This document shows positions 8,351-64,000 of a stretch of DNA of 64,000 nucleotides, one piece after another (position 1 is the stretch's first letter; each line of letters starts with the position of its first letter). The stretch spans positions 41,977,250 to 42,041,249 of the forward strand of contig OX439051.1 in assembly GCA_949317995.1 (NCBI GenBank), read 5' to 3'. A program made the translations under genes and the position numbers. The stretch is from Acholoe squamosa (Eukaryota > Annelida > Polychaeta > Phyllodocida > Polynoidae). The notes under the pieces were generated by a model. The model was not told the origin of the DNA and ran no database searches. It was given only the letters and a program-made list of their open reading frames with translations.

Positions 8351-8576
8351 TTATGATCCAAGGAAAAAAGATCATTATATATGAACTCTATGGCCTTTGG
8401 AATGGACCTATACTTAAATATATGCTCTGATTGTTGTGCTTCCTCGCTCTCTATGTAAAACCCTGTCCCATTGCTATAGTATGGAGTAAACCTATGCCTG
8501 GATTAAAATATGCAAATAAGGAATGTGTGTGAGGGTTGGGAGTAGTGTGGTGGTGGTATTGGTGGTGGTGGTGTCA

Positions 8577-12545: not shown

Positions 12546-12561
12546 GCTATAATATATACTA

Positions 12562-12794: not shown

Positions 12795-13320
12795 TATATA
12801 CCATGGCTCTGCCTGAGGTGTCCAGGGCTATCACCACTCTGTCGCCAGGGTCTACAATAAAAGGTCCACCAACACCACCACTTCTATGCTTGACTGATTT
12901 GCAGATTTTAATCCAGGTATAGGCATACTCAATACTGTACCTATGAGAGGATTATACATGGAGAGCGAGGAAGCACCACTATGAGAGCTTGTATTTAAGA
13001 ATGGGTCCCCTCCTATAGCCGTTCATTCCTAAGAATGAACAGCAACTAGTATATAGAACTCTGCATAACTCTTATTTGTGATATTCGCCTTAGCACACTA
13101 TAACAGTTAGAACAGCGACCAGTACACTGGATGTATTGAGAGGTTTATTTGTCTTCACATTGGTAACACTATCAGAAACTTGATGATTTTTTTCCAGTGT
13201 TCAATTATATCAGTTAAAATGTAAGCAGTTTCTTGTGTATCGTGCGGTTCTATTATGGGTCGTAAGTTACATATGAGTTCAAGTAAACCTTTAGGGCTGC
13301 AAAATGCCTCATGATGCTCC

Positions 13321-13645
13321 ATTGAGTCATCATGATGCACCAATGGTCATCATGATGCACTATTGGTCATCATGATGCACCAATGGTCATCATGATGCAC
13401 CAATGGTCATCATGATGCACTATTGGTCATCATGATGCACCAATGGTCATCATGATGCACTATTGGTCATCATGATGCACCAATGGTCATCATGATGCAC
13501 TATTGGTCATCATGATGCACCAATGGTCATCATGATGCACTATTGGTCATCATGATGCACCAATGGTCATCATGATGCACTATTGGTCATCATGATGCAC
13601 GATCTTTCATCATGATGCACCATTTGGTCATCATGATGCACCAAT
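13321..13645. repeat. 20-bp minisatellite, about 16 units
   Basis: Two alternating 20-mers, CAATGGTCATCATGATGCAC and TATTGGTCATCATGATGCAC, run with a strict 20-bp step from 13321; the last units are degraded (GATCTTTCATCATGATGCAC). The shared GGTCATCATGATGCAC core matches the arm of the palindromic repeat dispersed in this window (compare GGTCGTCATGATGCA near 22724). Confidence 0.95.
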
Positions 13646-29494: not shown

Positions 29495-29757
29495 TGGGTC
29501 TAGACCGGGGGTCTAGACCCCTAAATTCGACAGGGTGACATGGCCATTTCTTAAAATCGACATGTGACATGGAGCTTAGTGACAAGGACATAGAGAATGA
29601 AAAAGTTAGTGACATGAGACATGACCTTTCCTTAAAATCGACATGTGACATGGAGCTTAGTGACAGAGACATGGGGAAATAGAAATTTAGTGACATGTGA
29701 CATGGCATTTTCTTAAAATCGACATGTGACATGGGGACCCCCCATCTAGACCCCCAA
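29495..29757. repeat. 81-bp minisatellite bounded by TCTAGACC repeats
   Basis: TTAAAATCGACATGTGACAT occurs at 29551, 29632 and 29713 (81-bp step), with GTGACATG-type subrepeats inside each unit. GGGTCTAGACC on the left and ATCTAGACCCCC on the right border it. The minus-strand frame through it is a by-product of the repeat. Confidence 0.9.
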
Positions 29758-30789: not shown

Positions 30790-31386
30790 TAGAGAAAACA
30801 CATAGTATTTTGATACGCTATAACATGTATGCCATTGGGAAATGTGTTACAACTATGACTTCTGCCTTGATTTCACAGCTTATGTATGCTTAATGAACAG
30901 AGTAGGGTTTATGCTACATACTTAATCTTTGTCTGGCCAAAACACCATTCTCCTGTCATTTGAATGCTGCACATCAATCTAGGTCTTGTGGCCCAGGTAG
31001 CTTTGCGCAGTGGCAATACAATGGCCGATGAGGTCCATCCGAGGCGTGGTTATTGCTAGTTGAAAACTTTACCCAATACCCCGCGGTGTCGTCCTGAAAT
31101 ATGGATCGGCACTCGCAATTTCTGACATCTTCTGAGGGAGATGACAATTAAATAAAGAGAACACCTTTGACAGATATTTTCTTCCCTAAAGGAACTTGGC
31201 TCTGCAAAGTGCATTGATGCCTCGCACCCATTAATCTTGATGTCATGATGCATGAATACATCCCTGAGGAATACCTTACTAAAATACTTCATTCATGCAT
31301 CATGTTGAAGCTATGGGATTAATACACTTCCTAATGATCTGCACGATGCACCACTGCACTGGGGCTTCCCTAGCCCACTTTATAAT

Positions 31387-31551
31387 AAAAGGGTCTATAT
31401 CTTCTCTTTCCTATCCCCTAGGATGTGTGTGGTGCACATATGCGTGGGTACTGACACATTCCTCTGTGAAATTGTGTAATGTAGTTCTTGCCATGAATAT
31501 GACCTTAGCTGTCGAAATGCCATTAAACATATATTACTCACTCACTCACTC
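31387..31551 (+). mobile_element. old SINE fragment inside each macrosatellite unit (first copy)
   Basis: In plus orientation it reads AAAAGGGTCTATATCTTC, CTCTTTCCTATCCCCTA, GCCATGAATATGACCTTAGC, GCCATTAAACATATATT and (ACTC)n. The same order of blocks appears in the intact retroposon at 27923-28210 read on its minus strand. It is 5'-truncated or internally deleted and diverged. Because it is in every unit at the same place, it was there before the array amplified. Confidence 0.8.
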
Positions 31552-31833
31552 CACTGCACTGTGGGCATGTTACCTTAACACATGAAGAGCAGGCTGTCTC
31601 TATGCAGGCTGTCTCTATGCCTGGGTCTCTATGCAAGGATGGGCCGTATGAGTGAGGGATTGAGGCACTGATTCACAGGGGCCTGCATCGGAGTTTGTGT
31701 GAGCAATGCAGAGAGGCAGAGAAAAGCAGCCATTGGTAGGTCATGTTGTGTCAATGCCTTAAATCCACAGTGGTTTCAAAACCAATGTTGAATGTCCAAC
31801 ACCATTCAGTTCTGGTCTGTGTTAAATCTGCTG

Positions 31834-31899
31834 CTGCCTCCTGGTGTTTGTTAATCCAGTAGATGTGAGTTAGTTCCAAACTTGGCCACGAGATGGCTG
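31834..31899. promoter_or_regulatory. pair of CTCF-like motifs, present in every unit (first copy)
   Basis: ACACCAGGAGGCAG on the minus strand (31834-31847) and CCACGAGATGGCTG on the plus strand (31886-31899) each fit 12 of 14 positions of the core CCASYAGRKGGCRS. They are divergent and 38 bp apart. The core is from vertebrate and insect CTCF; binding in this organism is unknown. My rough estimate is about 0.2 matches of this quality per unit by chance, so one could be accidental. Confidence 0.35.
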
Positions 31900-34800
31900 C
31901 ACTCATTCAAGGTCTGCCCAAGAAATCAACCCAGTGTACTCCAAGATTAGAGAAAACACATAGTATTTTGATACGCTATAACATGTATGCCATTGGGAAA
32001 TGTGTTACAACTATGACTTCTGCCTTGATTTCACAGCTTATGTATGCTTAATGAACAGAGTAGGGTTTATGCTACATACTTAATCTTTGTCTGGCCAAAA
32101 CACCATTCTCCTGTCATTTGAATGCTGCACATCAATCTAGGTCTTGTGGCCCAGGTAGCTTTGCGCAGTGGCAATACAATGGCCGATGAGGTCCATCCGA
32201 GGCGTGGTTATTGCTAGTTGAAAACTTTACCCAATACCCCGCGGTGTCGTCCTGAAATATGGATCGGCACTCGCAATTTCTGACATCTTCTGAGGGAGAT
32301 GACAATTAAATAAAGAGAACACCTTTGACAGATATTTTCTTCCCTAAAGGAACTTGGCTCTGCAAAGTGCATTGATGCCTCGCACCCATTAATCTTGATG
32401 TCATGATGCATGAATACATCCCTGAGGAATACCTTACTAAAATACTTCATTCATGCATCATGTTGAAGCTATGGGATTAATACACTTCCTAATGATCTGC
32501 ACGATGCACCACTGCACTGGGGCTTCCCTAGCCCACTTTATAATAAAAGGGTCTATATCTTCTCTTTCCTATCCCCTAGGATGTGTGTGGTGCACATATG
32601 CGTGGGTACTGACACATTCCTCTGTGAAATTGTGTAATGTAGTTCTTGCCATGAATATGACCTTAGCTGTCGAAATGCCATTAAACATATATTACTCACT
32701 CACTCACTCCACTGCACTGTGGGCATGTTACCTTAACACATGAAGAGCAGGCTGTCTCTATGCAGGCTGTCTCTATGCCTGGGTCTCTATGCAAGGATGG
32801 GCCGTATGAGTGAGGGATTGAGGCACTGATTCACAGGGGCCTGCATCGGAGTTTGTGTGAGCAATGCAGAGAGGCAGAGAAAAGCAGCCATTGGTAGGTC
32901 ATGTTGTGTCAATGCCTTAAATCCACAGTGGTTTCAAAACCAATGTTGAATGTCCAACACCATTCAGTTCTGGTCTGTGTTAAATCTGCTGCTGCCTCCT
33001 GGTGTTTGTTAATCCAGTAGATGTGAGTTAGTTCCAAACTTGGCCACGAGATGGCTGCACTCATTCAAGGTCTGCCCAAGAAATCAACCCAGTGTACTCC
33101 AAGATTAGAGAAAACACATAGTATTTTGATACGCTATAACATGTATGCCATTGGGAAATGTGTTACAACTATGACTTCTGCCTTGATTTCACAGCTTATG
33201 TATGCTTAATGAACAGAGTAGGGTTTATGCTACATACTTAATCTTTGTCTGGCCAAAACACCATTCTCCTGTCATTTGAATGCTGCACATCAATCTAGGT
33301 CTTGTGGCCCAGGTAGCTTTGCGCAGTGGCAATACAATGGCCGATGAGGTCCATCCGAGGCGTGGTTATTGCTAGTTGAAAACTTTACCCAATACCCCGC
33401 GGTGTCGTCCTGAAATATGGATCGGCACTCGCAATTTCTGACATCTTCTGAGGGAGATGACAATTAAATAAAGAGAACACCTTTGACAGATATTTTCTTC
33501 CCTAAAGGAACTTGGCTCTGCAAAGTGCATTGATGCCTCGCACCCATTAATCTTGATGTCATGATGCATGAATACATCCCTGAGGAATACCTTACTAAAA
33601 TACTTCATTCATGCATCATGTTGAAGCTATGGGATTAATACACTTCCTAATGATCTGCACGATGCACCACTGCACTGGGGCTTCCCTAGCCCACTTTATA
33701 ATAAAAGGGTCTATATCTTCTCTTTCCTATCCCCTAGGATGTGTGTGGTGCACATATGCGTGGGTACTGACACATTCCTCTGTGAAATTGTGTAATGTAG
33801 TTCTTGCCATGAATATGACCTTAGCTGTCGAAATGCCATTAAACATATATTACTCACTCACTCACTCCACTGCACTGTGGGCATGTTACCTTAACACATG
33901 AAGAGCAGGCTGTCTCTATGCAGGCTGTCTCTATGCCTGGGTCTCTATGCAAGGATGGGCCGTATGAGTGAGGGATTGAGGCACTGATTCACAGGGGCCT
34001 GCATCGGAGTTTGTGTGAGCAATGCAGAGAGGCAGAGAAAAGCAGCCATTGGTAGGTCATGTTGTGTCAATGCCTTAAATCCACAGTGGTTTCAAAACCA
34101 ATGTTGAATGTCCAACACCATTCAGTTCTGGTCTGTGTTAAATCTGCTGCTGCCTCCTGGTGTTTGTTAATCCAGTAGATGTGAGTTAGTTCCAAACTTG
34201 GCCACGAGATGGCTGCACTCATTCAAGGTCTGCCCAAGAAATCAACCCAGTGTACTCCAAGATTAGAGAAAACACATAGTATTTTGATACGCTATAACAT
34301 GTATGCCATTGGGAAATGTGTTACAACTATGACTTCTGCCTTGATTTCACAGCTTATGTATGCTTAATGAACAGAGTAGGGTTTATGCTACATACTTAAT
34401 CTTTGTCTGGCCAAAACACCATTCTCCTGTCATTTGAATGCTGCACATCAATCTAGGTCTTGTGGCCCAGGTAGCTTTGCGCAGTGGCAATACAATGGCC
34501 GATGAGGTCCATCCGAGGCGTGGTTATTGCTAGTTGAAAACTTTACCCAATACCCCGCGGTGTCGTCCTGAAATATGGATCGGCACTCGCAATTTCTGAC
34601 ATCTTCTGAGGGAGATGACAATTAAATAAAGAGAACACCTTTGACAGATATTTTCTTCCCTAAAGGAACTTGGCTCTGCAAAGTGCATTGATGCCTCGCA
34701 CCCATTAATCTTGATGTCATGATGCATGAATACATCCCTGAGGAATACCTTACTAAAATACTTCATTCATGCATCATGTTGAAGCTATGGGATTAATACA

Positions 34801-35621
34801 CTTCCTAATGATCTGCACGATGCACCACTGCACTGGGGCTTCCCTAGCCCACTTTATAATAAAAGGGTCTATATCTTCTCTTTCCTATCCCCTAGGATGT
34901 GTGTGGTGCACATATGCGTGGGTACTGACACATTCCTCTGTGAAATTGTGTAATGTAGTTCTTGCCATGAATATGACCTTAGCTGTCGAAATGCCATTAA
35001 ACATATATTACTCACTCACTCACTCCACTGCACTGTGGGCATGTTACCTTAACACATGAAGAGCAGGCTGTCTCTATGCAGGCTGTCTCTATGCCTGGGT
35101 CTCTATGCAAGGATGGGCCGTATGAGTGAGGGATTGAGGCACTGATTCACAGGGGCCTGCATCGGAGTTTGTGTGAGCAATGCAGAGAGGCAGAGAAAAG
35201 CAGCCATTGGTAGGTCATGTTGTGTCAATGCCTTAAATCCACAGTGGTTTCAAAACCAATGTTGAATGTCCAACACCATTCAGTTCTGGTCTGTGTTAAA
35301 TCTGCTGCTGCCTCCTGGTGTTTGTTAATCCAGTAGATGTGAGTTAGTTCCAAACTTGGCCACGAGATGGCTGCACTCATTCAAGGTCTGCCCAAGAAAT
35401 CAACCCAGTGTACTCCAAGATTAGAGAAAACACATAGTATTTTGATACGCTATAACATGTATGCCATTGGGAAATGTGTTACAACTATGACTTCTGCCTT
35501 GATTTCACAGCTTATGTATGCTTAATGAACAGAGTAGGGTTTATGCTACATACTTAATCTTTGTCTGGCCAAAACACCATTCTCCTGTCATTTGAATGCT
35601 GCACATCAATCTAGGTCTTGT

Positions 35622-36024
35622 GGCCCAGGTAGCGTCGGGAGGCGTGGCGCAGTCGGTAGCGCGTCCGCTCACAGGCCGTAAGGTCGTGGGTTCGGTTCCC
35701 GGCCCGGCCGGGGCATAGTGGTGGTTCCAAACGTCGCCGTAAGGTGTCGTTTGAGTTCCTCCCTGCTCTGGCTAGGCTGTGCTGGAAAGTCTCTCGGCGG
35801 TCATGGCAGACAAATGACTTGAAACAGGCCTGTCCATCTCTCACTATGCCTATGTAGTGACGGATGTTAAAGAACCATTGCCTCGGTAAATGTGTAGGGG
35901 CGTGATTTCTACCTTAGCTCCCTCTAGTGTACGGGTCCGGGTTTCACGCCACGGGACCTCTCACCCTTGACGTGTCCAAAGGGCACATAGGTGAGGTTAA
36001 AATTCAAAGCAAGGCCCAGGTAGC
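35622..36024 (+). mobile_element. tRNA-derived SINE with 12-bp target duplication
   Basis: A 379-bp element (35634-36012) interrupts one macrosatellite unit between GGCCCAGGTAGC at 35622-35633 and 36013-36024. The head is tRNA-like, with an A box TGGCGCAGTCGG from 35645 and a B box GGTTCGGTTCC at 35689. A CGGATGTTAAAGAACCATTG block lies in the middle and the tail is GTTAAAATTCAAAGCAA. The empty site exists in all other units, so both ends are certain. A frame on the opposite strand (35611-35844) is a by-product. The insertion post-dates amplification of this unit. Confidence 0.93.
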
Positions 36025-39000
36025 TTTGCGCAGTGGCAATACAATGGCCGATGAGGTCCATCCGAGGCGTGGTTATTGCTAGTTGAAAACTTTACCCAAT
36101 ACCCCGCGGTGTCGTCCTGAAATATGGATCGGCACTCGCAATTTCTGACATCTTCTGAGGGAGATGACAATTAAATAAAGAGAACACCTTTGACAGATAT
36201 TTTCTTCCCTAAAGGAACTTGGCTCTGCAAAGTGCATTGATGCCTCGCACCCATTAATCTTGATGTCATGATGCATGAATACATCCCTGAGGAATACCTT
36301 ACTAAAATACTTCATTCATGCATCATGTTGAAGCTATGGGATTAATACACTTCCTAATGATCTGCACGATGCACCACTGCACTGGGGCTTCCCTAGCCCA
36401 CTTTATAATAAAAGGGTCTATATCTTCTCTTTCCTATCCCCTAGGATGTGTGTGGTGCACATATGCGTGGGTACTGACACATTCCTCTGTGAAATTGTGT
36501 AATGTAGTTCTTGCCATGAATATGACCTTAGCTGTCGAAATGCCATTAAACATATATTACTCACTCACTCACTCCACTGCACTGTGGGCATGTTACCTTA
36601 ACACATGAAGAGCAGGCTGTCTCTATGCAGGCTGTCTCTATGCCTGGGTCTCTATGCAAGGATGGGCCGTATGAGTGAGGGATTGAGGCACTGATTCACA
36701 GGGGCCTGCATCGGAGTTTGTGTGAGCAATGCAGAGAGGCAGAGAAAAGCAGCCATTGGTAGGTCATGTTGTGTCAATGCCTTAAATCCACAGTGGTTTC
36801 AAAACCAATGTTGAATGTCCAACACCATTCAGTTCTGGTCTGTGTTAAATCTGCTGCTGCCTCCTGGTGTTTGTTAATCCAGTAGATGTGAGTTAGTTCC
36901 AAACTTGGCCACGAGATGGCTGCACTCATTCAAGGTCTGCCCAAGAAATCAACCCAGTGTACTCCAAGATTAGAGAAAACACATAGTATTTTGATACGCT
37001 ATAACATGTATGCCATTGGGAAATGTGTTACAACTATGACTTCTGCCTTGATTTCACAGCTTATGTATGCTTAATGAACAGAGTAGGGTTTATGCTACAT
37101 ACTTAATCTTTGTCTGGCCAAAACACCATTCTCCTGTCATTTGAATGCTGCACATCAATCTAGGTCTTGTGGCCCAGGTAGCTTTGCGCAGTGGCAATAC
37201 AATGGCCGATGAGGTCCATCCGAGGCGTGGTTATTGCTAGTTGAAAACTTTACCCAATACCCCGCGGTGTCGTCCTGAAATATGGATCGGCACTCGCAAT
37301 TTCTGACATCTTCTGAGGGAGATGACAATTAAATAAAGAGAACACCTTTGACAGATATTTTCTTCCCTAAAGGAACTTGGCTCTGCAAAGTGCATTGATG
37401 CCTCGCACCCATTAATCTTGATGTCATGATGCATGAATACATCCCTGAGGAATACCTTACTAAAATACTTCATTCATGCATCATGTTGAAGCTATGGGAT
37501 TAATACACTTCCTAATGATCTGCACGATGCACCACTGCACTGGGGCTTCCCTAGCCCACTTTATAATAAAAGGGTCTATATCTTCTCTTTCCTATCCCCT
37601 AGGATGTGTGTGGTGCACATATGCGTGGGTACTGACACATTCCTCTGTGAAATTGTGTAATGTAGTTCTTGCCATGAATATGACCTTAGCTGTCGAAATG
37701 CCATTAAACATATATTACTCACTCACTCACTCCACTGCACTGTGGGCATGTTACCTTAACACATGAAGAGCAGGCTGTCTCTATGCAGGCTGTCTCTATG
37801 CCTGGGTCTCTATGCAAGGATGGGCCGTATGAGTGAGGGATTGAGGCACTGATTCACAGGGGCCTGCATCGGAGTTTGTGTGAGCAATGCAGAGAGGCAG
37901 AGAAAAGCAGCCATTGGTAGGTCATGTTGTGTCAATGCCTTAAATCCACAGTGGTTTCAAAACCAATGTTGAATGTCCAACACCATTCAGTTCTGGTCTG
38001 TGTTAAATCTGCTGCTGCCTCCTGGTGTTTGTTAATCCAGTAGATGTGAGTTAGTTCCAAACTTGGCCACGAGATGGCTGCACTCATTCAAGGTCTGCCC
38101 AAGAAATCAACCCAGTGTACTCCAAGATTAGAGAAAACACATAGTATTTTGATACGCTATAACATGTATGCCATTGGGAAATGTGTTACAACTATGACTT
38201 CTGCCTTGATTTCACAGCTTATGTATGCTTAATGAACAGAGTAGGGTTTATGCTACATACTTAATCTTTGTCTGGCCAAAACACCATTCTCCTGTCATTT
38301 GAATGCTGCACATCAATCTAGGTCTTGTGGCCCAGGTAGCTTTGCGCAGTGGCAATACAATGGCCGATGAGGTCCATCCGAGGCGTGGTTATTGCTAGTT
38401 GAAAACTTTACCCAATACCCCGCGGTGTCGTCCTGAAATATGGATCGGCACTCGCAATTTCTGACATCTTCTGAGGGAGATGACAATTAAATAAAGAGAA
38501 CACCTTTGACAGATATTTTCTTCCCTAAAGGAACTTGGCTCTGCAAAGTGCATTGATGCCTCGCACCCATTAATCTTGATGTCATGATGCATGAATACAT
38601 CCCTGAGGAATACCTTACTAAAATACTTCATTCATGCATCATGTTGAAGCTATGGGATTAATACACTTCCTAATGATCTGCACGATGCACCACTGCACTG
38701 GGGCTTCCCTAGCCCACTTTATAATAAAAGGGTCTATATCTTCTCTTTCCTATCCCCTAGGATGTGTGTGGTGCACATATGCGTGGGTACTGACACATTC
38801 CTCTGTGAAATTGTGTAATGTAGTTCTTGCCATGAATATGACCTTAGCTGTCGAAATGCCATTAAACATATATTACTCACTCACTCACTCCACTGCACTG
38901 TGGGCATGTTACCTTAACACATGAAGAGCAGGCTGTCTCTATGCAGGCTGTCTCTATGCCTGGGTCTCTATGCAAGGATGGGCCGTATGAGTGAGGGATT

Positions 39001-42000
39001 GAGGCACTGATTCACAGGGGCCTGCATCGGAGTTTGTGTGAGCAATGCAGAGAGGCAGAGAAAAGCAGCCATTGGTAGGTCATGTTGTGTCAATGCCTTA
39101 AATCCACAGTGGTTTCAAAACCAATGTTGAATGTCCAACACCATTCAGTTCTGGTCTGTGTTAAATCTGCTGCTGCCTCCTGGTGTTTGTTAATCCAGTA
39201 GATGTGAGTTAGTTCCAAACTTGGCCACGAGATGGCTGCACTCATTCAAGGTCTGCCCAAGAAATCAACCCAGTGTACTCCAAGATTAGAGAAAACACAT
39301 AGTATTTTGATACGCTATAACATGTATGCCATTGGGAAATGTGTTACAACTATGACTTCTGCCTTGATTTCACAGCTTATGTATGCTTAATGAACAGAGT
39401 AGGGTTTATGCTACATACTTAATCTTTGTCTGGCCAAAACACCATTCTCCTGTCATTTGAATGCTGCACATCAATCTAGGTCTTGTGGCCCAGGTAGCTT
39501 TGCGCAGTGGCAATACAATGGCCGATGAGGTCCATCCGAGGCGTGGTTATTGCTAGTTGAAAACTTTACCCAATACCCCGCGGTGTCGTCCTGAAATATG
39601 GATCGGCACTCGCAATTTCTGACATCTTCTGAGGGAGATGACAATTAAATAAAGAGAACACCTTTGACAGATATTTTCTTCCCTAAAGGAACTTGGCTCT
39701 GCAAAGTGCATTGATGCCTCGCACCCATTAATCTTGATGTCATGATGCATGAATACATCCCTGAGGAATACCTTACTAAAATACTTCATTCATGCATCAT
39801 GTTGAAGCTATGGGATTAATACACTTCCTAATGATCTGCACGATGCACCACTGCACTGGGGCTTCCCTAGCCCACTTTATAATAAAAGGGTCTATATCTT
39901 CTCTTTCCTATCCCCTAGGATGTGTGTGGTGCACATATGCGTGGGTACTGACACATTCCTCTGTGAAATTGTGTAATGTAGTTCTTGCCATGAATATGAC
40001 CTTAGCTGTCGAAATGCCATTAAACATATATTACTCACTCACTCACTCCACTGCACTGTGGGCATGTTACCTTAACACATGAAGAGCAGGCTGTCTCTAT
40101 GCAGGCTGTCTCTATGCCTGGGTCTCTATGCAAGGATGGGCCGTATGAGTGAGGGATTGAGGCACTGATTCACAGGGGCCTGCATCGGAGTTTGTGTGAG
40201 CAATGCAGAGAGGCAGAGAAAAGCAGCCATTGGTAGGTCATGTTGTGTCAATGCCTTAAATCCACAGTGGTTTCAAAACCAATGTTGAATGTCCAACACC
40301 ATTCAGTTCTGGTCTGTGTTAAATCTGCTGCTGCCTCCTGGTGTTTGTTAATCCAGTAGATGTGAGTTAGTTCCAAACTTGGCCACGAGATGGCTGCACT
40401 CATTCAAGGTCTGCCCAAGAAATCAACCCAGTGTACTCCAAGATTAGAGAAAACACATAGTATTTTGATACGCTATAACATGTATGCCATTGGGAAATGT
40501 GTTACAACTATGACTTCTGCCTTGATTTCACAGCTTATGTATGCTTAATGAACAGAGTAGGGTTTATGCTACATACTTAATCTTTGTCTGGCCAAAACAC
40601 CATTCTCCTGTCATTTGAATGCTGCACATCAATCTAGGTCTTGTGGCCCAGGTAGCTTTGCGCAGTGGCAATACAATGGCCGATGAGGTCCATCCGAGGC
40701 GTGGTTATTGCTAGTTGAAAACTTTACCCAATACCCCGCGGTGTCGTCCTGAAATATGGATCGGCACTCGCAATTTCTGACATCTTCTGAGGGAGATGAC
40801 AATTAAATAAAGAGAACACCTTTGACAGATATTTTCTTCCCTAAAGGAACTTGGCTCTGCAAAGTGCATTGATGCCTCGCACCCATTAATCTTGATGTCA
40901 TGATGCATGAATACATCCCTGAGGAATACCTTACTAAAATACTTCATTCATGCATCATGTTGAAGCTATGGGATTAATACACTTCCTAATGATCTGCACG
41001 ATGCACCACTGCACTGGGGCTTCCCTAGCCCACTTTATAATAAAAGGGTCTATATCTTCTCTTTCCTATCCCCTAGGATGTGTGTGGTGCACATATGCGT
41101 GGGTACTGACACATTCCTCTGTGAAATTGTGTAATGTAGTTCTTGCCATGAATATGACCTTAGCTGTCGAAATGCCATTAAACATATATTACTCACTCAC
41201 TCACTCCACTGCACTGTGGGCATGTTACCTTAACACATGAAGAGCAGGCTGTCTCTATGCAGGCTGTCTCTATGCCTGGGTCTCTATGCAAGGATGGGCC
41301 GTATGAGTGAGGGATTGAGGCACTGATTCACAGGGGCCTGCATCGGAGTTTGTGTGAGCAATGCAGAGAGGCAGAGAAAAGCAGCCATTGGTAGGTCATG
41401 TTGTGTCAATGCCTTAAATCCACAGTGGTTTCAAAACCAATGTTGAATGTCCAACACCATTCAGTTCTGGTCTGTGTTAAATCTGCTGCTGCCTCCTGGT
41501 GTTTGTTAATCCAGTAGATGTGAGTTAGTTCCAAACTTGGCCACGAGATGGCTGCACTCATTCAAGGTCTGCCCAAGAAATCAACCCAGTGTACTCCAAG
41601 ATTAGAGAAAACACATAGTATTTTGATACGCTATAACATGTATGCCATTGGGAAATGTGTTACAACTATGACTTCTGCCTTGATTTCACAGCTTATGTAT
41701 GCTTAATGAACAGAGTAGGGTTTATGCTACATACTTAATCTTTGTCTGGCCAAAACACCATTCTCCTGTCATTTGAATGCTGCACATCAATCTAGGTCTT
41801 GTGGCCCAGGTAGCTTTGCGCAGTGGCAATACAATGGCCGATGAGGTCCATCCGAGGCGTGGTTATTGCTAGTTGAAAACTTTACCCAATACCCCGCGGT
41901 GTCGTCCTGAAATATGGATCGGCACTCGCAATTTCTGACATCTTCTGAGGGAGATGACAATTAAATAAAGAGAACACCTTTGACAGATATTTTCTTCCCT

Positions 42001-48000: not shown

Positions 48001-49009
48001 ATCTTCTCTTTCCTATCCCCTAGGATGTGTGTGGTGCACATATGCGTGGGTACTGACACATTCCTCTGTGAAATTGTGTAATGTAGTTCTTGCCATGAAT
48101 ATGACCTTAGCTGTCGAAATGCCATTAAACATATATTACTCACTCACTCACTCCACTGCACTGTGGGCATGTTACCTTAACACATGAAGAGCAGGCTGTC
48201 TCTATGCAGGCTGTCTCTATGCCTGGGTCTCTATGCAAGGATGGGCCGTATGAGTGAGGGATTGAGGCACTGATTCACAGGGGCCTGCATCGGAGTTTGT
48301 GTGAGCAATGCAGAGAGGCAGAGAAAAGCAGCCATTGGTAGGTCATGTTGTGTCAATGCCTTAAATCCACAGTGGTTTCAAAACCAATGTTGAATGTCCA
48401 ACACCATTCAGTTCTGGTCTGTGTTAAATCTGCTGCTGCCTCCTGGTGTTTGTTAATCCAGTAGATGTGAGTTAGTTCCAAACTTGGCCACGAGATGGCT
48501 GCACTCATTCAAGGTCTGCCCAAGAAATCAACCCAGTGTACTCCAAGATTAGAGAAAACACATAGTATTTTGATACGCTATAACATGTATGCCATTGGGA
48601 AATGTGTTACAACTATGACTTCTGCCTTGATTTCACAGCTTATGTATGCTTAATGAACAGAGTAGGGTTTATGCTACATACTTAATCTTTGTCTGGCCAA
48701 AACACCATTCTCCTGTCATTTGAATGCTGCACATCAATCTAGGTCTTGTGGCCCAGGTAGCTTTGCGCAGTGGCAATACAATGGCCGATGAGGTCCATCC
48801 GAGGCGTGGTTATTGCTAGTTGAAAACTTTACCCAATACCCCGCGGTGTCGTCCTGAAATATGGATCGGCACTCGCAATTTCTGACATCTTCTGAGGGAG
48901 ATGACAATTAAATAAAGAGAACACCTTTGACAGATATTTTCTTCCCTAAAGGAACTTGGCTCTGCAAAGTGCATTGATGCCTCGCACCCATTAATCTTGA
49001 TGTCATGAT

Positions 49010-49209
49010 NNNNNNNNNNNNNNNNNNNNNNNNNNNNNNNNNNNNNNNNNNNNNNNNNNNNNNNNNNNNNNNNNNNNNNNNNNNNNNNNNNNNNNNNNNN
49101 NNNNNNNNNNNNNNNNNNNNNNNNNNNNNNNNNNNNNNNNNNNNNNNNNNNNNNNNNNNNNNNNNNNNNNNNNNNNNNNNNNNNNNNNNNNNNNNNNNNN
49201 NNNNNNNNN
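49010..49209. other. assembly gap of exactly 200 N inside the macrosatellite
   Basis: Sequence stops after TGTCATGAT and resumes at CTAATGATCTGC. In intact units 81 bp separate these points, so 200 N is a placeholder and not a measured size. The true gap could be 81 bp plus any number of 1158-bp units. Frames that run through the N are meaningless. Confidence 0.97.
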
Positions 49210-52200: not shown

Positions 52201-55200
52201 TACAACTATGACTTCTGCCTTGATTTCACAGCTTATGTATGCTTAATGAACAGAGTAGGGTTTATGCTACATACTTAATCTTTGTCTGGCCAAAACACCA
52301 TTCTCCTGTCATTTGAATGCTGCACATCAATCTAGGTCTTGTGGCCCAGGTAGCTTTGCGCAGTGGCAATACAATGGCCGATGAGGTCCATCCGAGGCGT
52401 GGTTATTGCTAGTTGAAAACTTTACCCAATACCCCGCGGTGTCGTCCTGAAATATGGATCGGCACTCGCAATTTCTGACATCTTCTGAGGGAGATGACAA
52501 TTAAATAAAGAGAACACCTTTGACAGATATTTTCTTCCCTAAAGGAACTTGGCTCTGCAAAGTGCATTGATGCCTCGCACCCATTAATCTTGATGTCATG
52601 ATGCATGAATACATCCCTGAGGAATACCTTACTAAAATACTTCATTCATGCATCATGTTGAAGCTATGGGATTAATACACTTCCTAATGATCTGCACGAT
52701 GCACCACTGCACTGGGGCTTCCCTAGCCCACTTTATAATAAAAGGGTCTATATCTTCTCTTTCCTATCCCCTAGGATGTGTGTGGTGCACATATGCGTGG
52801 GTACTGACACATTCCTCTGTGAAATTGTGTAATGTAGTTCTTGCCATGAATATGACCTTAGCTGTCGAAATGCCATTAAACATATATTACTCACTCACTC
52901 ACTCCACTGCACTGTGGGCATGTTACCTTAACACATGAAGAGCAGGCTGTCTCTATGCAGGCTGTCTCTATGCCTGGGTCTCTATGCAAGGATGGGCCGT
53001 ATGAGTGAGGGATTGAGGCACTGATTCACAGGGGCCTGCATCGGAGTTTGTGTGAGCAATGCAGAGAGGCAGAGAAAAGCAGCCATTGGTAGGTCATGTT
53101 GTGTCAATGCCTTAAATCCACAGTGGTTTCAAAACCAATGTTGAATGTCCAACACCATTCAGTTCTGGTCTGTGTTAAATCTGCTGCTGCCTCCTGGTGT
53201 TTGTTAATCCAGTAGATGTGAGTTAGTTCCAAACTTGGCCACGAGATGGCTGCACTCATTCAAGGTCTGCCCAAGAAATCAACCCAGTGTACTCCAAGAT
53301 TAGAGAAAACACATAGTATTTTGATACGCTATAACATGTATGCCATTGGGAAATGTGTTACAACTATGACTTCTGCCTTGATTTCACAGCTTATGTATGC
53401 TTAATGAACAGAGTAGGGTTTATGCTACATACTTAATCTTTGTCTGGCCAAAACACCATTCTCCTGTCATTTGAATGCTGCACATCAATCTAGGTCTTGT
53501 GGCCCAGGTAGCTTTGCGCAGTGGCAATACAATGGCCGATGAGGTCCATCCGAGGCGTGGTTATTGCTAGTTGAAAACTTTACCCAATACCCCGCGGTGT
53601 CGTCCTGAAATATGGATCGGCACTCGCAATTTCTGACATCTTCTGAGGGAGATGACAATTAAATAAAGAGAACACCTTTGACAGATATTTTCTTCCCTAA
53701 AGGAACTTGGCTCTGCAAAGTGCATTGATGCCTCGCACCCATTAATCTTGATGTCATGATGCATGAATACATCCCTGAGGAATACCTTACTAAAATACTT
53801 CATTCATGCATCATGTTGAAGCTATGGGATTAATACACTTCCTAATGATCTGCACGATGCACCACTGCACTGGGGCTTCCCTAGCCCACTTTATAATAAA
53901 AGGGTCTATATCTTCTCTTTCCTATCCCCTAGGATGTGTGTGGTGCACATATGCGTGGGTACTGACACATTCCTCTGTGAAATTGTGTAATGTAGTTCTT
54001 GCCATGAATATGACCTTAGCTGTCGAAATGCCATTAAACATATATTACTCACTCACTCACTCCACTGCACTGTGGGCATGTTACCTTAACACATGAAGAG
54101 CAGGCTGTCTCTATGCAGGCTGTCTCTATGCCTGGGTCTCTATGCAAGGATGGGCCGTATGAGTGAGGGATTGAGGCACTGATTCACAGGGGCCTGCATC
54201 GGAGTTTGTGTGAGCAATGCAGAGAGGCAGAGAAAAGCAGCCATTGGTAGGTCATGTTGTGTCAATGCTTTAAATCCACAGTGGTTTCAAAACCAATGTT
54301 GAATGTCCAACACCATTCAGTTCTGGTCTGTGTTAAATCTGCTGCTGCCTCCTGGTGTTTGTTAATCCAGTAGATGTGAGTTAGTTCCAAACTTGGCCAC
54401 GAGATGGCTGCACTCATTCAAGGTCTGCCCAAGAAATCAACCCAGTGTACTCCAAGATTAGAGAAAACACATAGTGTTTTGATACGCTATAACATGTATG
54501 CCATTGGGAAATGTGTTACAACTATGACTTCTGCCTTGATTTCACAGCTTATGTATGCTTAATGAACAGAGTAGGGTTTATGCTACATACTTAATCTTTG
54601 TCTGGCCAAAACACCATTCTCCTGTCATTTGAATGCTGCACATCAATCTAGGTCTTGTGGCCCAGGTAGCTTTGCGCAGTGGCAATACAATGGCCGATGA
54701 GGTCCATCCGAGGCGTGGTTATTGCTAGTTGAAAACTTTACCCAATACCCCGCGGTGTCGTCCTGAAATATGGATCGGCACTCGCAATTTCTGACATCTT
54801 CTGAGGGAGATGACAATTAAATAAAGAGAACACCTTTGACAGATATTTTCTTCCCTAAAGGAACTTGGCTCTGCAAAGTGCATTGATGCCTCGCACCCAT
54901 TAATCTTGATGTCATGATGCATGAATACATCCCTGAGGAATACCTTACTAAAATACTTCATTCATGCATCATGTTGAAGCTATGGGATTAATACACTTCC
55001 TAATGATCTGCACGATGCACCACTGCACTGGGGCTTCCCTAGCCCACTTTATAATAAAAGGGTCTATATCTTCTCTTTCCTATCCCCTAGGATGTGTGTG
55101 GTGCACATATGCGTGGGTACTGACACATTCCTCTGTGAAATTGTGTAATGTAGTTCTTGCCATGAATATGACCTTAGCTGTCGAAATGCCATTAAACATA

Positions 55201-58200
55201 TATTACTCACTCACTCACTCCACTGCACTGTGGGCATGTTACCTTAACACATGAAGAGCAGGCTGTCTCTATGCAGGCTGTCTCTATGCCTGGGTCTCTA
55301 TGCAAGGATGGGCCGTATGAGTGAGGGATTGAGGCACTGATTCACAGGGGCCTGCATCGGAGTTTGTGTGAGCAATGCAGAGAGGCAGAGAAAAGCAGCC
55401 ATTGGTAGGTCATGTTGTGTCAATGCTTTAAATCCACAGTGGTTTCAAAACCAATGTTGAATGTCCAACACCATTCAGTTCTGGTCTGTGTTAAATCTGC
55501 TGCTGCCTCCTGGTGTTTGTTAATCCAGTAGATGTGAGTTAGTTCCAAACTTGGCCACGAGATGGCTGCACTCATTCAAGGTCTGCCCAAGAAATCAACC
55601 CAGTGTACTCCAAGATTAGAGAAAACACATAGTGTTTTGATACGCTATAACATGTATGCCATTGGGAAATGTGTTACAACTATGACTTCTGCCTTGATTT
55701 CACAGCTTATGTATGCTTAATGAACAGAGTAGGGTTTATGCTACATACTTAATCTTTGTCTGGCCAAAACACCATTCTCCTGTCATTTGAATGCTGCACA
55801 TCAATCTAGGTCTTGTGGCCCAGGTAGCTTTGCGCAGTGGCAATACAATGGCCGATGAGGTCCATCCGAGGCGTGGTTATTGCTAGTTGAAAACTTTACC
55901 CAATACCCCGCGGTGTCGTCCTGAAATATGGATCGGCACTCGCAATTTCTGACATCTTCTGAGGGAGATGACAATTAAATAAAGAGAACACCTTTGACAG
56001 ATATTTTCTTCCCTAAAGGAACTTGGCTCTGCAAAGTGCATTGATGCCTCGCACCCATTAATCTTGATGTCATGATGCATGAATACATCCCTGAGGAATA
56101 CCTTACTAAAATACTTCATTCATGCATCATGTTGAAGCTATGGGATTAATACACTTCCTAATGATCTGCACGATGCACCACTGCACTGGGGCTTCCCTAG
56201 CCCACTTTATAATAAAAGGGTCTATATCTTCTCTTTCCTATCCCCTAGGATGTGTGTGGTGCACATATGCGTGGGTACTGACACATTCCTCTGTGAAATT
56301 GTGTAATGTAGTTCTTGCCATGAATATGACCTTAGCTGTCGAAATGCCATTAAACATATATTACTCACTCACTCACTCCACTGCACTGTGGGCATGTTAC
56401 CTTAACACATGAAGAGCAGGCTGTCTCTATGCAGGCTGTCTCTATGCCTGGGTCTCTATGCAAGGATGGGCCGTATGAGTGAGGGATTGAGGCACTGATT
56501 CACAGGGGCCTGCATCGGAGTTTGTGTGAGCAATGCAGAGAGGCAGAGAAAAGCAGCCATTGGTAGGTCATGTTGTGTCAATGCCTTAAATCCACAGTGG
56601 TTTCAAAACCAATGTTGAATGTCCAACACCATTCAGTTCTGGTCTGTGTTAAATCTGCTGCTGCCTCCTGGTGTTTGTTGATCCAGTAGATGTGAGTTAG
56701 TTCCAAACTTGGCCACGAGATGGCTGCACTCATTCAAGGTCTGCCCAAGAAATCAACCCAGTGTACTCCAAGATTAGAGAAAACACATAGTATTTTGATA
56801 CGCTATAACATGTATGCCATTGGGAAATGTGTTACAACTATGACTTCTGCCTTGATTTCACAGCTTATGTATGCTTAATGAACAGAGTAGGGTTTATGCT
56901 ACATACTTAATCTTTGTCTGGCCAAAACACCATTCTCCTGTCATTTGAATGCTGCACATCAATCTAGGTCTTGTGGCCCAGGTAGCTTTGCGCAGTGGCA
57001 ATACAATGGCCGATGAGGTCCATCCGAGGCGTGGTTATTGCTAGTTGAAAACTTTACCCAATACCCCGCGGTGTCGTCCTGAAATATGGATCGGCACTCG
57101 CAATTTCTGACATCTTCTGAGGGAGATGACAATTAAATAAAGAGAACACCTTTGACAGATATTTTCTTCCCTAAAGGAACTTGGCTCTGCAAAGTGCATT
57201 GATGCCTCGCACCCATTAATCTTGATGTCATGATGCATGAATACATCCCTGAGGAATACCTTACTAAAATACTTCATTCATGCATCATGTTGAAGCTATG
57301 GGATTAATACACTTCCTAATGATCTGCACGATGCACCACTGCACTGGGGCTTCCCTAGCCCACTTTATAATAAAAGGGTCTATATCTTCTCTTTCCTATC
57401 CCCTAGGATGTGTGTGGTGCACATATGCGTGGGTACTGACACATTCCTCTGTGAAATTGTGTAATGTAGTTCTTGCCATGAATATGACCTTAGCTGTCGA
57501 AATGCCATTAAACATATATTACTCACTCACTCACTCCACTGCACTGTGGGCATGTTACCTTAACACATGAAGAGCAGGCTGTCTCTATGCAGGCTGTCTC
57601 TATGCCTGGGTCTCTATGCAAGGATGGGCCGTATGAGTGAGGGATTGAGGCACTGATTCACAGGGGCCTGCATCGGAGTTTGTGTGAGCAATGCAGAGAG
57701 GCAGAGAAAAGCAGCCATTGGTAGGTCATGTTGTGTCAATGCCTTAAATCCACAGTGGTTTCAAAACCAATGTTGAATGTCCAACACCATTCAGTTCTGG
57801 TCTGTGTTAAATCTGCTGCTGCCTCCTGGTGTTTGTTAATCCAGTAGATGTGAGTTAGTTCCAAACTTGGCCACGAGATGGCTGCACTCATTCAAGGTCT
57901 GCCCAAGAAATCAACCCAGTGTACTCCAAGATTAGAGAAAACACATAGTATTTTGATACGCTATAACATGTATGCCATTGGGAAATGTGTTACAACTATG
58001 ACTTCTGCCTTGATTTCACAGCTTATGTATGCTTAATGAACAGAGTAGGGTTTATGCTACATACTTAATCTTTGTCTGGCCAAAACACCATTCTCCTGTC
58101 ATTTGAATGCTGCACATCAATCTAGGTCTTGTGGCCCAGGTAGCTTTGCGCAGTGGCAATACAATGGCCGATGAGGTCCATCCGAGGCGTGGTTATTGCT

Positions 58201-61200
58201 AGTTGAAAACTTTACCCAATACCCCGCGGTGTCGTCCTGAAATATGGATCGGCACTCGCAATTTCTGACATCTTCTGAGGGAGATGACAATTAAATAAAG
58301 AGAACACCTTTGACAGATATTTTCTTCCCTAAAGGAACTTGGCTCTGCAAAGTGCATTGATGCCTCGCACCCATTAATCTTGATGTCATGATGCATGAAT
58401 ACATCCCTGAGGAATACCTTACTAAAATACTTCATTCATGCATCATGTTGAAGCTATGGGATTAATACACTTCCTAATGATCTGCACGATGCACCACTGC
58501 ACTGGGGCTTCCCTAGCCCACTTTATAATAAAAGGGTCTATATCTTCTCTTTCCTATCCCCTAGGATGTGTGTGGTGCACATATGCGTGGGTACTGACAC
58601 ATTCCTCTGTGAAATTGTGTAATGTAGTTCTTGCCATGAATATGACCTTAGCTGTCGAAATGCCATTAAACATATATTACTCACTCACTCACTCCACTGC
58701 ACTGTGGGCATGTTACCTTAACACATGAAGAGCAGGCTGTCTCTATGCAGGCTGTCTCTATGCCTGGGTCTCTATGCAAGGATGGGCCGTATGAGTGAGG
58801 GATTGAGGCACTGATTCACAGGGGCCTGCATCGGAGTTTGTGTGAGCAATGCAGAGAGGCAGAGAAAAGCAGCCATTGGTAGGTCATGTTGTGTCAATGC
58901 CTTAAATCCACAGTGGTTTCAAAACCAATGTTGAATGTCCAACACCATTCAGTTCTGGTCTGTGTTAAATCTGCTGCTGCCTCCTGGTGTTTGTTAATCC
59001 AGTAGATGTGAGTTAGTTCCAAACTTGGCCACGAGATGGCTGCACTCATTCAAGGTCTGCCCAAGAAATCAACCCAGTGTACTCCAAGATTAGAGAAAAC
59101 ACATAGTATTTTGATACGCTATAACATGTATGCCATTGGGAAATGTGTTACAACTATGACTTCTGCCTTGATTTCACAGCTTATGTATGCTTAATGAACA
59201 GAGTAGGGTTTATGCTACATACTTAATCTTTGTCTGGCCAAAACACCATTCTCCTGTCATTTGAATGCTGCACATCAATCTAGGTCTTGTGGCCCAGGTA
59301 GCTTTGCGCAGTGGCAATACAATGGCCGATGAGGTCCATCCGAGGCGTGGTTATTGCTAGTTGAAAACTTTACCCAATACCCCGCGGTGTCGTCCTGAAA
59401 TATGGATCGGCACTCGCAATTTCTGACATCTTCTGAGGGAGATGACAATTAAATAAAGAGAACACCTTTGACAGATATTTTCTTCCCTAAAGGAACTTGG
59501 CTCTGCAAAGTGCATTGATGCCTCGCACCCATTAATCTTGATGTCATGATGCATGAATACATCCCTGAGGAATACCTTACTAAAATACTTCATTCATGCA
59601 TCATGTTGAAGCTATGGGATTAATACACTTCCTAATGATCTGCACGATGCACCACTGCACTGGGGCTTCCCTAGCCCACTTTATAATAAAAGGGTCTATA
59701 TCTTCTCTTTCCTATCCCCTAGGATGTGTGTGGTGCACATATGCGTGGGTACTGACACATTCCTCTGTGAAATTGTGTAATGTAGTTCTTGCCATGAATA
59801 TGACCTTAGCTGTCGAAATGCCATTAAACATATATTACTCACTCACTCACTCCACTGCACTGTGGGCATGTTACCTTAACACATGAAGAGCAGGCTGTCT
59901 CTATGCAGGCTGTCTCTATGCCTGGGTCTCTATGCAAGGATGGGCCGTATGAGTGAGGGATTGAGGCACTGATTCACAGGGGCCTGCATCGGAGTTTGTG
60001 TGAGCAATGCAGAGAGGCAGAGAAAAGCAGCCATTGGTAGGTCATGTTGTGTCAATGCCTTAAATCCACAGTGGTTTCAAAACCAATGTTGAATGTCCAA
60101 CACCATTCAGTTCTGGTCTGTGTTAAATCTGCTGCTGCCTCCTGGTGTTTGTTAATCCAGTAGATGTGAGTTAGTTCCAAACTTGGCCACGAGATGGCTG
60201 CACTCATTCAAGGTCTGCCCAAGAAATCAACCCAGTGTACTCCAAGATTAGAGAAAACACATAGTATTTTGATACGCTATAACATGTATGCCATTGGGAA
60301 ATGTGTTACAACTATGACTTCTGCCTTGATTTCACAGCTTATGTATGCTTAATGAACAGAGTAGGGTTTATGCTACATACTTAATCTTTGTCTGGCCAAA
60401 ACACCATTCTCCTGTCATTTGAATGCTGCACATCAATCTAGGTCTTGTGGCCCAGGTAGCTTTGCGCAGTGGCAATACAATGGCCGATGAGGTCCATCCG
60501 AGGCGTGGTTATTGCTAGTTGAAAACTTTACCCAATACCCCGCGGTGTCGTCCTGAAATATGGATCGGCACTCGCAATTTCTGACATCTTCTGAGGGAGA
60601 TGACAATTAAATAAAGAGAACACCTTTGACAGATATTTTCTTCCCTAAAGGAACTTGGCTCTGCAAAGTGCATTGATGCCTCGCACCCATTAATCTTGAT
60701 GTCATGATGCATGAATACATCCCTGAGGAATACCTTACTAAAATACTTCATTCATGCATCATGTTGAAGCTATGGGATTAATACACTTCCTAATGATCTG
60801 CACGATGCACCACTGCACTGGGGCTTCCCTAGCCCACTTTATAATAAAAGGGTCTATATCTTCTCTTTCCTATCCCCTAGGATGTGTGTGGTGCACATAT
60901 GCGTGGGTACTGACACATTCCTCTGTGAAATTGTGTAATGTAGTTCTTGCCATGAATATGACCTTAGCTGTCGAAATGCCATTAAACATATATTACTCAC
61001 TCACTCACTCCACTGCACTGTGGGCATGTTACCTTAACACATGAAGAGCAGGCTGTCTCTATGCAGGCTGTCTCTATGCCTGGGTCTCTATGCAAGGATG
61101 GGCCGTATGAGTGAGGGATTGAGGCACTGATTCACAGGGGCCTGCATCGGAGTTTGTGTGAGCAATGCAGAGAGGCAGAGAAAAGCAGCCATTGGTAGGT

Positions 61201-64000
61201 CATGTTGTGTCAATGCCTTAAATCCACAGTGGTTTCAAAACCAATGTTGAATGTCCAACACCATTCAGTTCTGGTCTGTGTTAAATCTGCTGCTGCCTCC
61301 TGGTGTTTGTTAATCCAGTAGATGTGAGTTAGTTCCAAACTTGGCCACGAGATGGCTGCACTCATTCAAGGTCTGCCCAAGAAATCAACCCAGTGTACTC
61401 CAAGATTAGAGAAAACACATAGTATTTTGATACGCTATAACATGTATGCCATTGGGAAATGTGTTACAACTATGACTTCTGCCTTGATTTCACAGCTTAT
61501 GTATGCTTAATGAACAGAGTAGGGTTTATGCTACATACTTAATCTTTGTCTGGCCAAAACACCATTCTCCTGTCATTTGAATGCTGCACATCAATCTAGG
61601 TCTTGTGGCCCAGGTAGCTTTGCGCAGTGGCAATACAATGGCCGATGAGGTCCATCCGAGGCGTGGTTATTGCTAGTTGAAAACTTTACCCAATACCCCG
61701 CGGTGTCGTCCTGAAATATGGATCGGCACTCGCAATTTCTGACATCTTCTGAGGGAGATGACAATTAAATAAAGAGAACACCTTTGACAGATATTTTCTT
61801 CCCTAAAGGAACTTGGCTCTGCAAAGTGCATTGATGCCTCGCACCCATTAATCTTGATGTCATGATGCATGAATACATCCCTGAGGAATACCTTACTAAA
61901 ATACTTCATTCATGCATCATGTTGAAGCTATGGGATTAATACACTTCCTAATGATCTGCACGATGCACCACTGCACTGGGGCTTCCCTAGCCCACTTTAT
62001 AATAAAAGGGTCTATATCTTCTCTTTCCTATCCCCTAGGATGTGTGTGGTGCACATATGCGTGGGTACTGACACATTCCTCTGTGAAATTGTGTAATGTA
62101 GTTCTTGCCATGAATATGACCTTAGCTGTCGAAATGCCATTAAACATATATTACTCACTCACTCACTCCACTGCACTGTGGGCATGTTACCTTAACACAT
62201 GAAGAGCAGGCTGTCTCTATGCAGGCTGTCTCTATGCCTGGGTCTCTATGCAAGGATGGGCCGTATGAGTGAGGGATTGAGGCACTGATTCACAGGGGCC
62301 TGCATCGGAGTTTGTGTGAGCAATGCAGAGAGGCAGAGAAAAGCAGCCATTGGTAGGTCATGTTGTGTCAATGCCTTAAATCCACAGTGGTTTCAAAACC
62401 AATGTTGAATGTCCAACACCATTCAGTTCTGGTCTGTGTTAAATCTGCTGCTGCCTCCTGGTGTTTGTTAATCCAGTAGATGTGAGTTAGTTCCAAACTT
62501 GGCCACGAGATGGCTGCACTCATTCAAGGTCTGCCCAAGAAATCAACCCAGTGTACTCCAAGATTAGAGAAAACACATAGTATTTTGATACGCTATAACA
62601 TGTATGCCATTGGGAAATGTGTTACAACTATGACTTCTGCCTTGATTTCACAGCTTATGTATGCTTAATGAACAGAGTAGGGTTTATGCTACATACTTAA
62701 TCTTTGTCTGGCCAAAACACCATTCTCCTGTCATTTGAATGCTGCACATCAATCTAGGTCTTGTGGCCCAGGTAGCTTTGCGCAGTGGCAATACAATGGC
62801 CGATGAGGTCCATCCGAGGCGTGGTTATTGCTAGTTGAAAACTTTACCCAATACCCCGCGGTGTCGTCCTGAAATATGGATCGGCACTCGCAATTTCTGA
62901 CATCTTCTGAGGGAGATGACAATTAAATAAAGAGAACACCTTTGACAGATATTTTCTTCCCTAAAGGAACTTGGCTCTGCAAAGTGCATTGATGCCTCGC
63001 ACCCATTAATCTTGATGTCATGATGCATGAATACATCCCTGAGGAATACCTTACTAAAATACTTCATTCATGCATCATGTTGAAGCTATGGGATTAATAC
63101 ACTTCCTAATGATCTGCACGATGCACCACTGCACTGGGGCTTCCCTAGCCCACTTTATAATAAAAGGGTCTATATCTTCTCTTTCCTATCCCCTAGGATG
63201 TGTGTGGTGCACATATGCGTGGGTACTGACACATTCCTCTGTGAAATTGTGTAATGTAGTTCTTGCCATGAATATGACCTTAGCTGTCGAAATGCCATTA
63301 AACATATATTACTCACTCACTCACTCCACTGCACTGTGGGCATGTTACCTTAACACATGAAGAGCAGGCTGTCTCTATGCAGGCTGTCTCTATGCCTGGG
63401 TCTCTATGCAAGGATGGGCCGTATGAGTGAGGGATTGAGGCACTGATTCACAGGGGCCTGCATCGGAGTTTGTGTGAGCAATGCAGAGAGGCAGAGAAAA
63501 GCAGCCATTGGTAGGTCATGTTGTGTCAATGCCTTAAATCCACAGTGGTTTCAAAACCAATGTTGAATGTCCAACACCATTCAGTTCTGGTCTGTGTTAA
63601 ATCTGCTGCTGCCTCCTGGTGTTTGTTAATCCAGTAGATGTGAGTTAGTTCCAAACTTGGCCACGAGATGGCTGCACTCATTCAAGGTCTGCCCAAGAAA
63701 TCAACCCAGTGTACTCCAAGATTAGAGAAAACACATAGTATTTTGATACGCTATAACATGTATGCCATTGGGAAATGTGTTACAACTATGACTTCTGCCT
63801 TGATTTCACAGCTTATGTATGCTTAATGAACAGAGTAGGGTTTATGCTACATACTTAATCTTTGTCTGGCCAAAACACCATTCTCCTGTCATTTGAATGC
63901 TGCACATCAATCTAGGTCTTGTGGCCCAGGTAGCTTTGCGCAGTGGCAATACAATGGCCGATGAGGTCCATCCGAGGCGTGGTTATTGCTAGTTGAAAAC

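What the first reader, a model, noticed from the sequence alone, without database searches (positions are those of the whole stretch)
30790..64000. Near-identical 1158-bp macrosatellite of at least 28 units
The strict 1158-bp head-to-tail array starts abruptly at 30790 and runs off the window. Units differ by only a handful of bases over 33 kb. Such homogeneity at this unit size implies recent amplification, frequent gene conversion or unequal exchange. Large-unit satellites of this kind can be centromeric, heterochromatic or structural (as with DXZ4-type macrosatellites). I do not know this unit.
Basis: partly seen in the sequence, partly recalled or inferred. Interest (0 to 1): 0.7.

Follow-up and report, generated by a model that had tools for sequence, protein, structure and literature searches.

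The report
Tandem array of U4 splicing-RNA genes
The near-identical 1158-base repeat is not an anonymous satellite but a head-to-tail array of genes for U4, one of the small RNAs that cells use to splice messenger RNA; repeated genes of this sort are a known arrangement, so the find is clear but fairly ordinary.

Summary
The array is real: 1158-bp units run head to tail from 30790 to the window end (28 units plus the start of a 29th); 22 of 28 are letter-identical if one insertion is set aside. The RNA keeps both U6-pairing stretches, a paired central stem, an Sm-like site and a terminal hairpin, with some departures in the 5' stem-loop. So this is most likely a tandem U4 gene family homogenised by recombination, like human RNU2, itself called a macrosatellite. 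Extra anatomy: a 379-bp SINE-like insert with a 12-bp target-site duplication separates U4 copy 5 from its upstream region; an older retroelement tail lies in every unit; a 200-N gap inside unit 16 leaves the copy number open. Species, right edge, expression and genome-wide copies were not determined (genome search did not complete). New member of a known kind; interest low to moderate.

The parts
30790..64000 (+). tandem array of 1158-bp U4 snRNA gene units: 28 units plus the first 278 bases of a 29th; continues beyond the window
30999..31143 (+). U4 snRNA gene, copy 1 (Rfam match 30999-31140, model 1-138 of 138; the predicted terminal hairpin ends at 31143). Further copies start at 32157, 33315, 34473, 36022, 37180, 38338, 39496, 40654, 41812, 42970, 44128, 45286, 46444, 47601, 48759, 50036, 51194, 52352, 53510, 54668, 55826, 56984, 58142, 59300, 60458, 61616, 62774; a 29th at 63932 is cut by the window end
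   Evidence: 28 of 28 complete copies identical over 160 bases from the start
30950..30969 (+). possible PSE-like promoter element (-49 to -30), resembling vertebrate PSEs as recalled; untested, and about 10 bp closer to the start than usual
   Evidence: read by eye; comparison from memory
31148..31160 (+). possible 3' box just after the U4 3' end; resembles the consensus as recalled; untested
   Evidence: read by eye; consensus recalled
31365..31550 (+). old retroelement tail fixed in the unit, ending in (ACTC)n and lying between two 14-bp near-identical words (31351-31364 / 31551-31564, 13 of 14 alike). Its 3' part (from 31387) has a relative in the left flank; its 5' limit rests on the short duplication alone
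   Evidence: exact copies in 27 of 28 units, (unit 18 differs by 2 bases)
35634..36012 (+). 379-bp insert in unit 5, read as a tRNA-derived SINE; target-site duplication GGCCCAGGTAGC at 35622-35633 and 36013-36024; leaves U4 copy 5 (36022) with 9 bp of its own 5' flank
   Evidence: removing insert plus one duplicate gives unit 1 exactly; weak tRNA-model match at 35638-35710, 17.5 bits, E 0.61, below gathering
49010..49209 (.). run of exactly 200 N inside unit 16: assembly gap, so the array length is unresolved

Best explanation
The array is a tandem multigene family for the major-spliceosome U4 snRNA, probably of an animal. Each 1158-bp unit is one self-contained gene: about 210 bp of upstream DNA that should hold the snRNA promoter, about 145 bp of U4, a 3'-box-like signal, and roughly 800 bp of spacer containing an old retroelement tail. 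RNA polymerase II would transcribe each unit, and the U4 RNA would bind Sm and 15.5K proteins and pair with U6 in the U4/U6 di-snRNP. Tandem copies would meet a high demand for U4 RNA, and unequal exchange and gene conversion would keep gene and spacer identical. Shown: array, U4 identity, main structural features, identical copies, insertion. Inferred: organism, transcription, promoter parts, demand, and exchange as the cause.
For: Rfam RF00015 matches 29 of 29 units on one strand; 28 over the full model at 108 bits (gathering score 46), the 29th cut by the window end. A permissive scan of two units found only two other families, both below gathering. The 28 complete genes are identical. Against the Rfam consensus, of 28 pairs 14 are the same, 4 differ on one side, 6 on both sides and still pair, 4 are broken (the alignment was fitted to the model, which leans towards its structure). 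The central hairpin folds alone with 12 pairs and two single-base bulges, the terminal one with 7 pairs. Cofolding with a recalled stretch of human U6 gives stem II (13 pairs) and stem I (8 pairs). Against letter-shuffled U4 pieces, stem II is reached by 0 of 1000, stem I by 37 of 1000 when U6 is limited to that region, 57 of 1000 against the whole stretch. Exchange: position 969 is shared by units 20 and 21, position 18 by units 21 and 22.
Against: No expression data, no relatives, species unknown. In the 5' stem-loop 2 of 11 consensus pairs are broken, and neither the free fold nor the cofold gives that stem-loop its consensus form. The whole RNA folds no better than shuffles (z -0.36; 66 of 200). 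The Sm site reads AAUUUCUG where the consensus has AAUUUUUG. The cofold also has a further 4-pair contact that I did not test. Identity to the consensus is 99 of 138 columns. The six variable positions of the array lie outside the gene, but with so few this says nothing about selection on it. Another, better U4 locus elsewhere cannot be excluded.
Confidence: 0.93

Rival explanations
1. Satellite made from a silent U4 copy: a segment with a U4 pseudogene amplified as a non-functional macrosatellite, with the real U4 genes elsewhere.
For: Departures in the 5' stem-loop and Sm site; identical spacers show that homogenisation does not depend on selection on the gene.
Against: Full-length U4 with both U6-pairing stretches kept and six pairs that differ on both sides from the Rfam consensus yet still pair, which a decaying copy would hardly keep.
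Confidence: 0.06
2. Structural macrosatellite (centromeric, heterochromatic or DXZ4-like), the U4 content being incidental.
For: Large unit, high homogeneity, long array.
Against: Each unit is a complete gene unit, and a tandem snRNA gene array with these properties is known (RNU2). Chromatin evidence could not be sought here.
Confidence: 0.02
3. Assembly artefact: repeat count inflated by the assembler. (Not exclusive with the best explanation: the unit would still be a U4 gene.)
For: A run of exactly 200 N inside unit 16 marks a join within the array; 13 units in a row (1-13) are identical apart from the insert in unit 5, and identical units are hard to count.
Against: Unit 5 carries a unique insert, and units 14, 18, 20, 21 and 22 carry distinct or neighbour-shared changes, so several units are separately real. 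A join within the array suggests a count that is too low rather than too high (inference).
Confidence: 0.04

Closest known systems
Human RNU2 locus (tandem U2 snRNA genes, 6.1-kb unit, 6-82 copies per allele; PMC3795722, passages seen incl. parts of the abstract)
   Same: Head-to-tail, nearly perfect array, one snRNA gene per unit, called a macrosatellite and missing from the reference assembly for long.
   Different: U4 instead of U2; unit 1158 bp instead of 6.1 kb; another organism.
Tandem U1 and U2 snRNA gene arrays of sea urchins, Xenopus, fish and insects (recalled; that fish snRNA genes lie in tandem repeats is stated in passages seen of PMC10532334)
   Same: snRNA genes in tandem repeats.
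   Different: U1 and U2 are the families usually described; the passages seen set U4 and U6 apart from those at single sites in Ancistrus and mention defective U4 copies there.
Other U4 genes: human RNU4-1/RNU4-2 and chicken U4B/U4X (recalled); Arabidopsis, 11 U4 copies, seven of them in U1-U4 clusters (PMC545797, passages seen); tunicate Didemnum, U4 apparently single-copy (PMC5006418, passage seen)
   Same: Same RNA family; in Arabidopsis partly clustered.
   Different: Few or dispersed copies, or paired with U1, rather than a long homogeneous array of U4 alone.

Membership tests
U4 spliceosomal RNA (RF00015) | Covariance-model match above the gathering score over the whole model | tested here: met
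   108 bits against 46, model 1-138 of 138, in 28 of 28 complete copies
U4 spliceosomal RNA (RF00015) | Pairs with U6 in stems I and II | tested here: met
   cofold with a recalled human U6 stretch gives both; shuffles reach stem II in 0 of 1000 and stem I in 37 of 1000, so stem I is weaker evidence; the organism's own U6 was not available
U4 spliceosomal RNA (RF00015) | 5' stem-loop with the 15.5K-binding kink-turn | tested here: inconclusive
   kink-turn-like letters present by reading, but 2 of 11 consensus pairs broken and the consensus form not found by free folding
U4 spliceosomal RNA (RF00015) | Sm site followed by a 3' hairpin | tested here: met
   AAUUUCUG, one base off the Rfam consensus, and a 7-pair hairpin; Sm binding itself not tested
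Tandem snRNA gene array under concerted evolution | Head-to-tail units, one gene each, gene and spacer homogenised within the array | tested here: met
[quoted passage not shown]
   no relatives found (in viral and prokaryotic collections); genome search unanswered
Tandem snRNA gene array under concerted evolution | snRNA-type promoter (DSE, PSE) and 3' box | tested here: inconclusive
   PSE- and 3'-box-like stretches read by eye, consensus recalled; no scan, no relatives; no DSE sought. That these elements define human snRNA genes: passages of PMC9138887
DXZ4-type or centromeric macrosatellite | CTCF or CENP-A chromatin function | not testable with these tools
   no chromatin data

The most novel reading that the evidence does not exclude
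The usually low-copy U4 gene has here been amplified alone into a long homogeneous array that is the species' main U4 source, carrying a lineage-specific U4 (altered Sm site and 5' stem-loop), with the multicopy U4 genes serving as landing sites for a SINE at the U4 start.
Probability: 0.15. Interest if true: 0.4.

Novelty: new member of a known kind. Interest (0 to 1): 0.22.

Why it matters
It turns an anonymous macrosatellite into a named gene family: a spliceosomal RNA encoded by at least 28 near-identical tandem units. It offers a clean case for studying how recombination homogenises snRNA genes, with natural markers (one insert, a few shared substitutions), and warns that such arrays can be mistaken for satellite DNA. 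Long arrays of U4 alone seem less often reported than U1 or U2 arrays, but my literature search covered open-access papers only.

Tried and rejected
Protein-coding content: no ORF of 200 aa or more in the window with ATG, GTG or TTG starts. Of 12 stop-to-stop frames of 100 aa or more in the left flank, 10 were given to Pfam and none matched at E 0.1; frame 5194-5754 had no credible solved relative (best E 0.71). tRNA genes: none by ARAGORN. Other RNA families: in two units two families below gathering; in the left flank eight matches below gathering, seven of them on a TA run or a 20-bp tandem repeat, none an snRNA. Comparative U4: a U4 core pattern found nothing in viral contigs or genome contigs, which hold viral and prokaryotic DNA, so this says little. 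Genome-wide copy number: the genome search did not complete seven times. Papers: ten searches answered; most hits were seen as listings only. Passages were seen of PMC12923391, PMC10532334, PMC4291461, PMC5006418, PMC3795722, PMC9138887, PMC545797, PMC7789003 and PMC12787238 and the abstract of PMC3706591; none describes a long array of U4 alone. Marz 2008 and PMC1171455 are not held. A mollusc as source (from the ACTC-tailed element and the SINE) is a guess from recall and not claimed. My first control for stem I let the U4 piece pair anywhere on the U6 stretch; I repeated it with U6 limited to the stem I region and give both.

Full report
Observation. The tandem array is real and begins at exactly 30790, where identity between units 1 and 2 stops abruptly. 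The 29 U4 starts lie 1158 bases apart in 25 of 28 intervals; the exceptions are a 391-bp insertion in unit 5, a 1-bp deletion in unit 14 and a 200-N gap in unit 16. One search cut units by the distance to the U4 start, so it puts the insertion at the end of its unit 4 and shows its unit 5 as very different; searches show that units 4 and 5 equal unit 1 apart from the insertion. Of 28 units 22 equal unit 1 (unit 5 with the insertion set aside); unit 14 lacks one base, unit 16 differs only by the gap, and units 18, 20, 21 and 22 have one or two substitutions each. The 24 equal-length units (units 4, 5, 14 and 16 left out) hold 7 substitutions in 27,792 bases. The 29th unit is cut at the window end and is identical as far as it goes.

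What it is. Rfam's U4 model matches 29 of 29 units on the plus strand; 28 are full length at 108 bits (gathering score 46) and the last is cut. A permissive search over two units shows only two other families, both below gathering. The 28 complete genes are identical over 160 bases. Identity to the Rfam consensus is 99 of 138 columns; of 28 consensus pairs 14 are unchanged, 4 differ on one side, 6 on both sides while still pairing, and 4 are broken, two in the central stem and two in the 5' stem-loop (that alignment is fitted to the model). Folded alone, the central stem re-registers to 12 pairs with two bulged bases, and the terminal hairpin has 7. Cofolding the first 82 bases with a recalled stretch of human U6 gives stem II (13 pairs), stem I (8 pairs) and an untested 4-pair contact. 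Letter shuffles of the U4 piece reach stem II in 0 of 1000, stem I in 37 of 1000 with U6 limited to that region and 57 of 1000 with the whole stretch.

Results against. The whole RNA folds no better than dinucleotide shuffles (z -0.36, 66 of 200); the 5' stem-loop does not take its consensus form in the free fold or the cofold; the Sm site has one changed base. Taken together I still read it as a working U4 gene rather than a decayed copy. That the organism is an animal is inferred from the style of the gene and of the retroelements, not a tool result.

Anatomy of the unit. 209 bases upstream of U4 belong to unit 1, with a PSE-like stretch at 30950-30969; a 3'-box-like stretch follows at 31148-31160. 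Both were read by eye against recalled consensus sequences and not tested; human snRNA genes use DSE, PSE and a 3' box (PMC9138887, passages). The spacer holds a retroelement tail ending in ACTC repeats between two 14-bp words that differ by one base (31351-31364, 31551-31564, from a tool whose description warns that short two-copy families are often chance matches). Its part from 31387 on matches 27929-28181 on the minus strand in the left flank at 75-78%. The stretch 31365-31550 is exact in 27 of 28 units, unit 18 differing by two bases, so it predates the amplification.

The insertion in unit 5. A 379-bp element (35634-36012) lies between two copies of a 12-bp word, 35622-35633 and 36013-36024; without it and one copy the unit equals unit 1 exactly. 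That is the mark of a target-site duplication. Its 5' part weakly resembles a tRNA (17.5 bits, E 0.61, below gathering), hence the reading as a tRNA-derived SINE. It leaves U4 copy 5 with 9 bp of its own 5' flank, so this copy is probably silent (inference). It is in one unit only, so it came after the array formed and has not spread. One insertion cannot show target preference; DNA transposons that target U1 and U6 genes are known (PMC3706591, abstract), but they are of another kind.

How the array stays uniform. Variants are rare and clustered: position 969 is shared by units 20 and 21, position 18 by units 21 and 22. Such overlapping sharing is what unequal exchange or short conversion tracts leave; this is inference. 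Identical spacers show that selection on the gene alone is not the cause. The six variable positions (five substituted, one deleted) lie outside the gene, but so few do not test constraint.

Assembly. Exactly 200 N replace 81 unit bases in unit 16; such a fixed length is typical of scaffolding (recalled). The true number of units is therefore unknown and may be larger. The right edge lies outside the window, and the whole-genome search did not complete.

Comparison with the known. Human RNU2 is the nearest parallel: a 6.1-kb unit with a U2 gene in a nearly perfect tandem array, 6-82 copies per allele, called a macrosatellite (PMC3795722, passages). [quoted passage not shown] Fish snRNA genes are described as tandem repeats, with defective U4 copies in Ancistrus (PMC10532334, passages); U2 and U4 have been mapped on fish chromosomes (title in a reference list). 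Arabidopsis has 11 U4 copies and seven U1-U4 clusters (PMC545797, passages); Didemnum appears to have one U4 (PMC5006418, passage). In what I saw of ten answered searches, mostly listings, no long homogeneous array of U4 alone is described; the library is open-access only, so this is no proof of absence. I file it as a new member of a known kind.

Verdict. Observation confirmed; identity solved; interpretation partly supported; interest modest.

Noticed in passing
8570-9637 and 9872-12287: A 134-bp tandem repeat (7.9 and 17.9 copies, 88% matches) in two blocks; the stretch between them (9639-9877) has an inverted relative at 12558-12796 (87%) and a weaker one at 24721-24971 (75%): probably a local satellite interrupted by a dispersed element.
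   Followed up: no
13309-13643: A 20-bp tandem repeat (TCATGATGCACCATTGGTCA, 16.6 copies, 89% matches).
   Followed up: no
23390-24350: A direct duplication of about 480 bp, two adjoining copies 98% identical.
   Followed up: no
29537-29734: An 81-bp tandem repeat (2.4 copies, 87% matches) about 1 kb before the array edge.
   Followed up: no
35634-36012: The SINE-like insert has no second copy in the left flank at E 0.01.
   Followed up: partly
5194-5754 (minus strand): Open frame of 186 aa without Pfam match or credible solved relative.
   Followed up: partly
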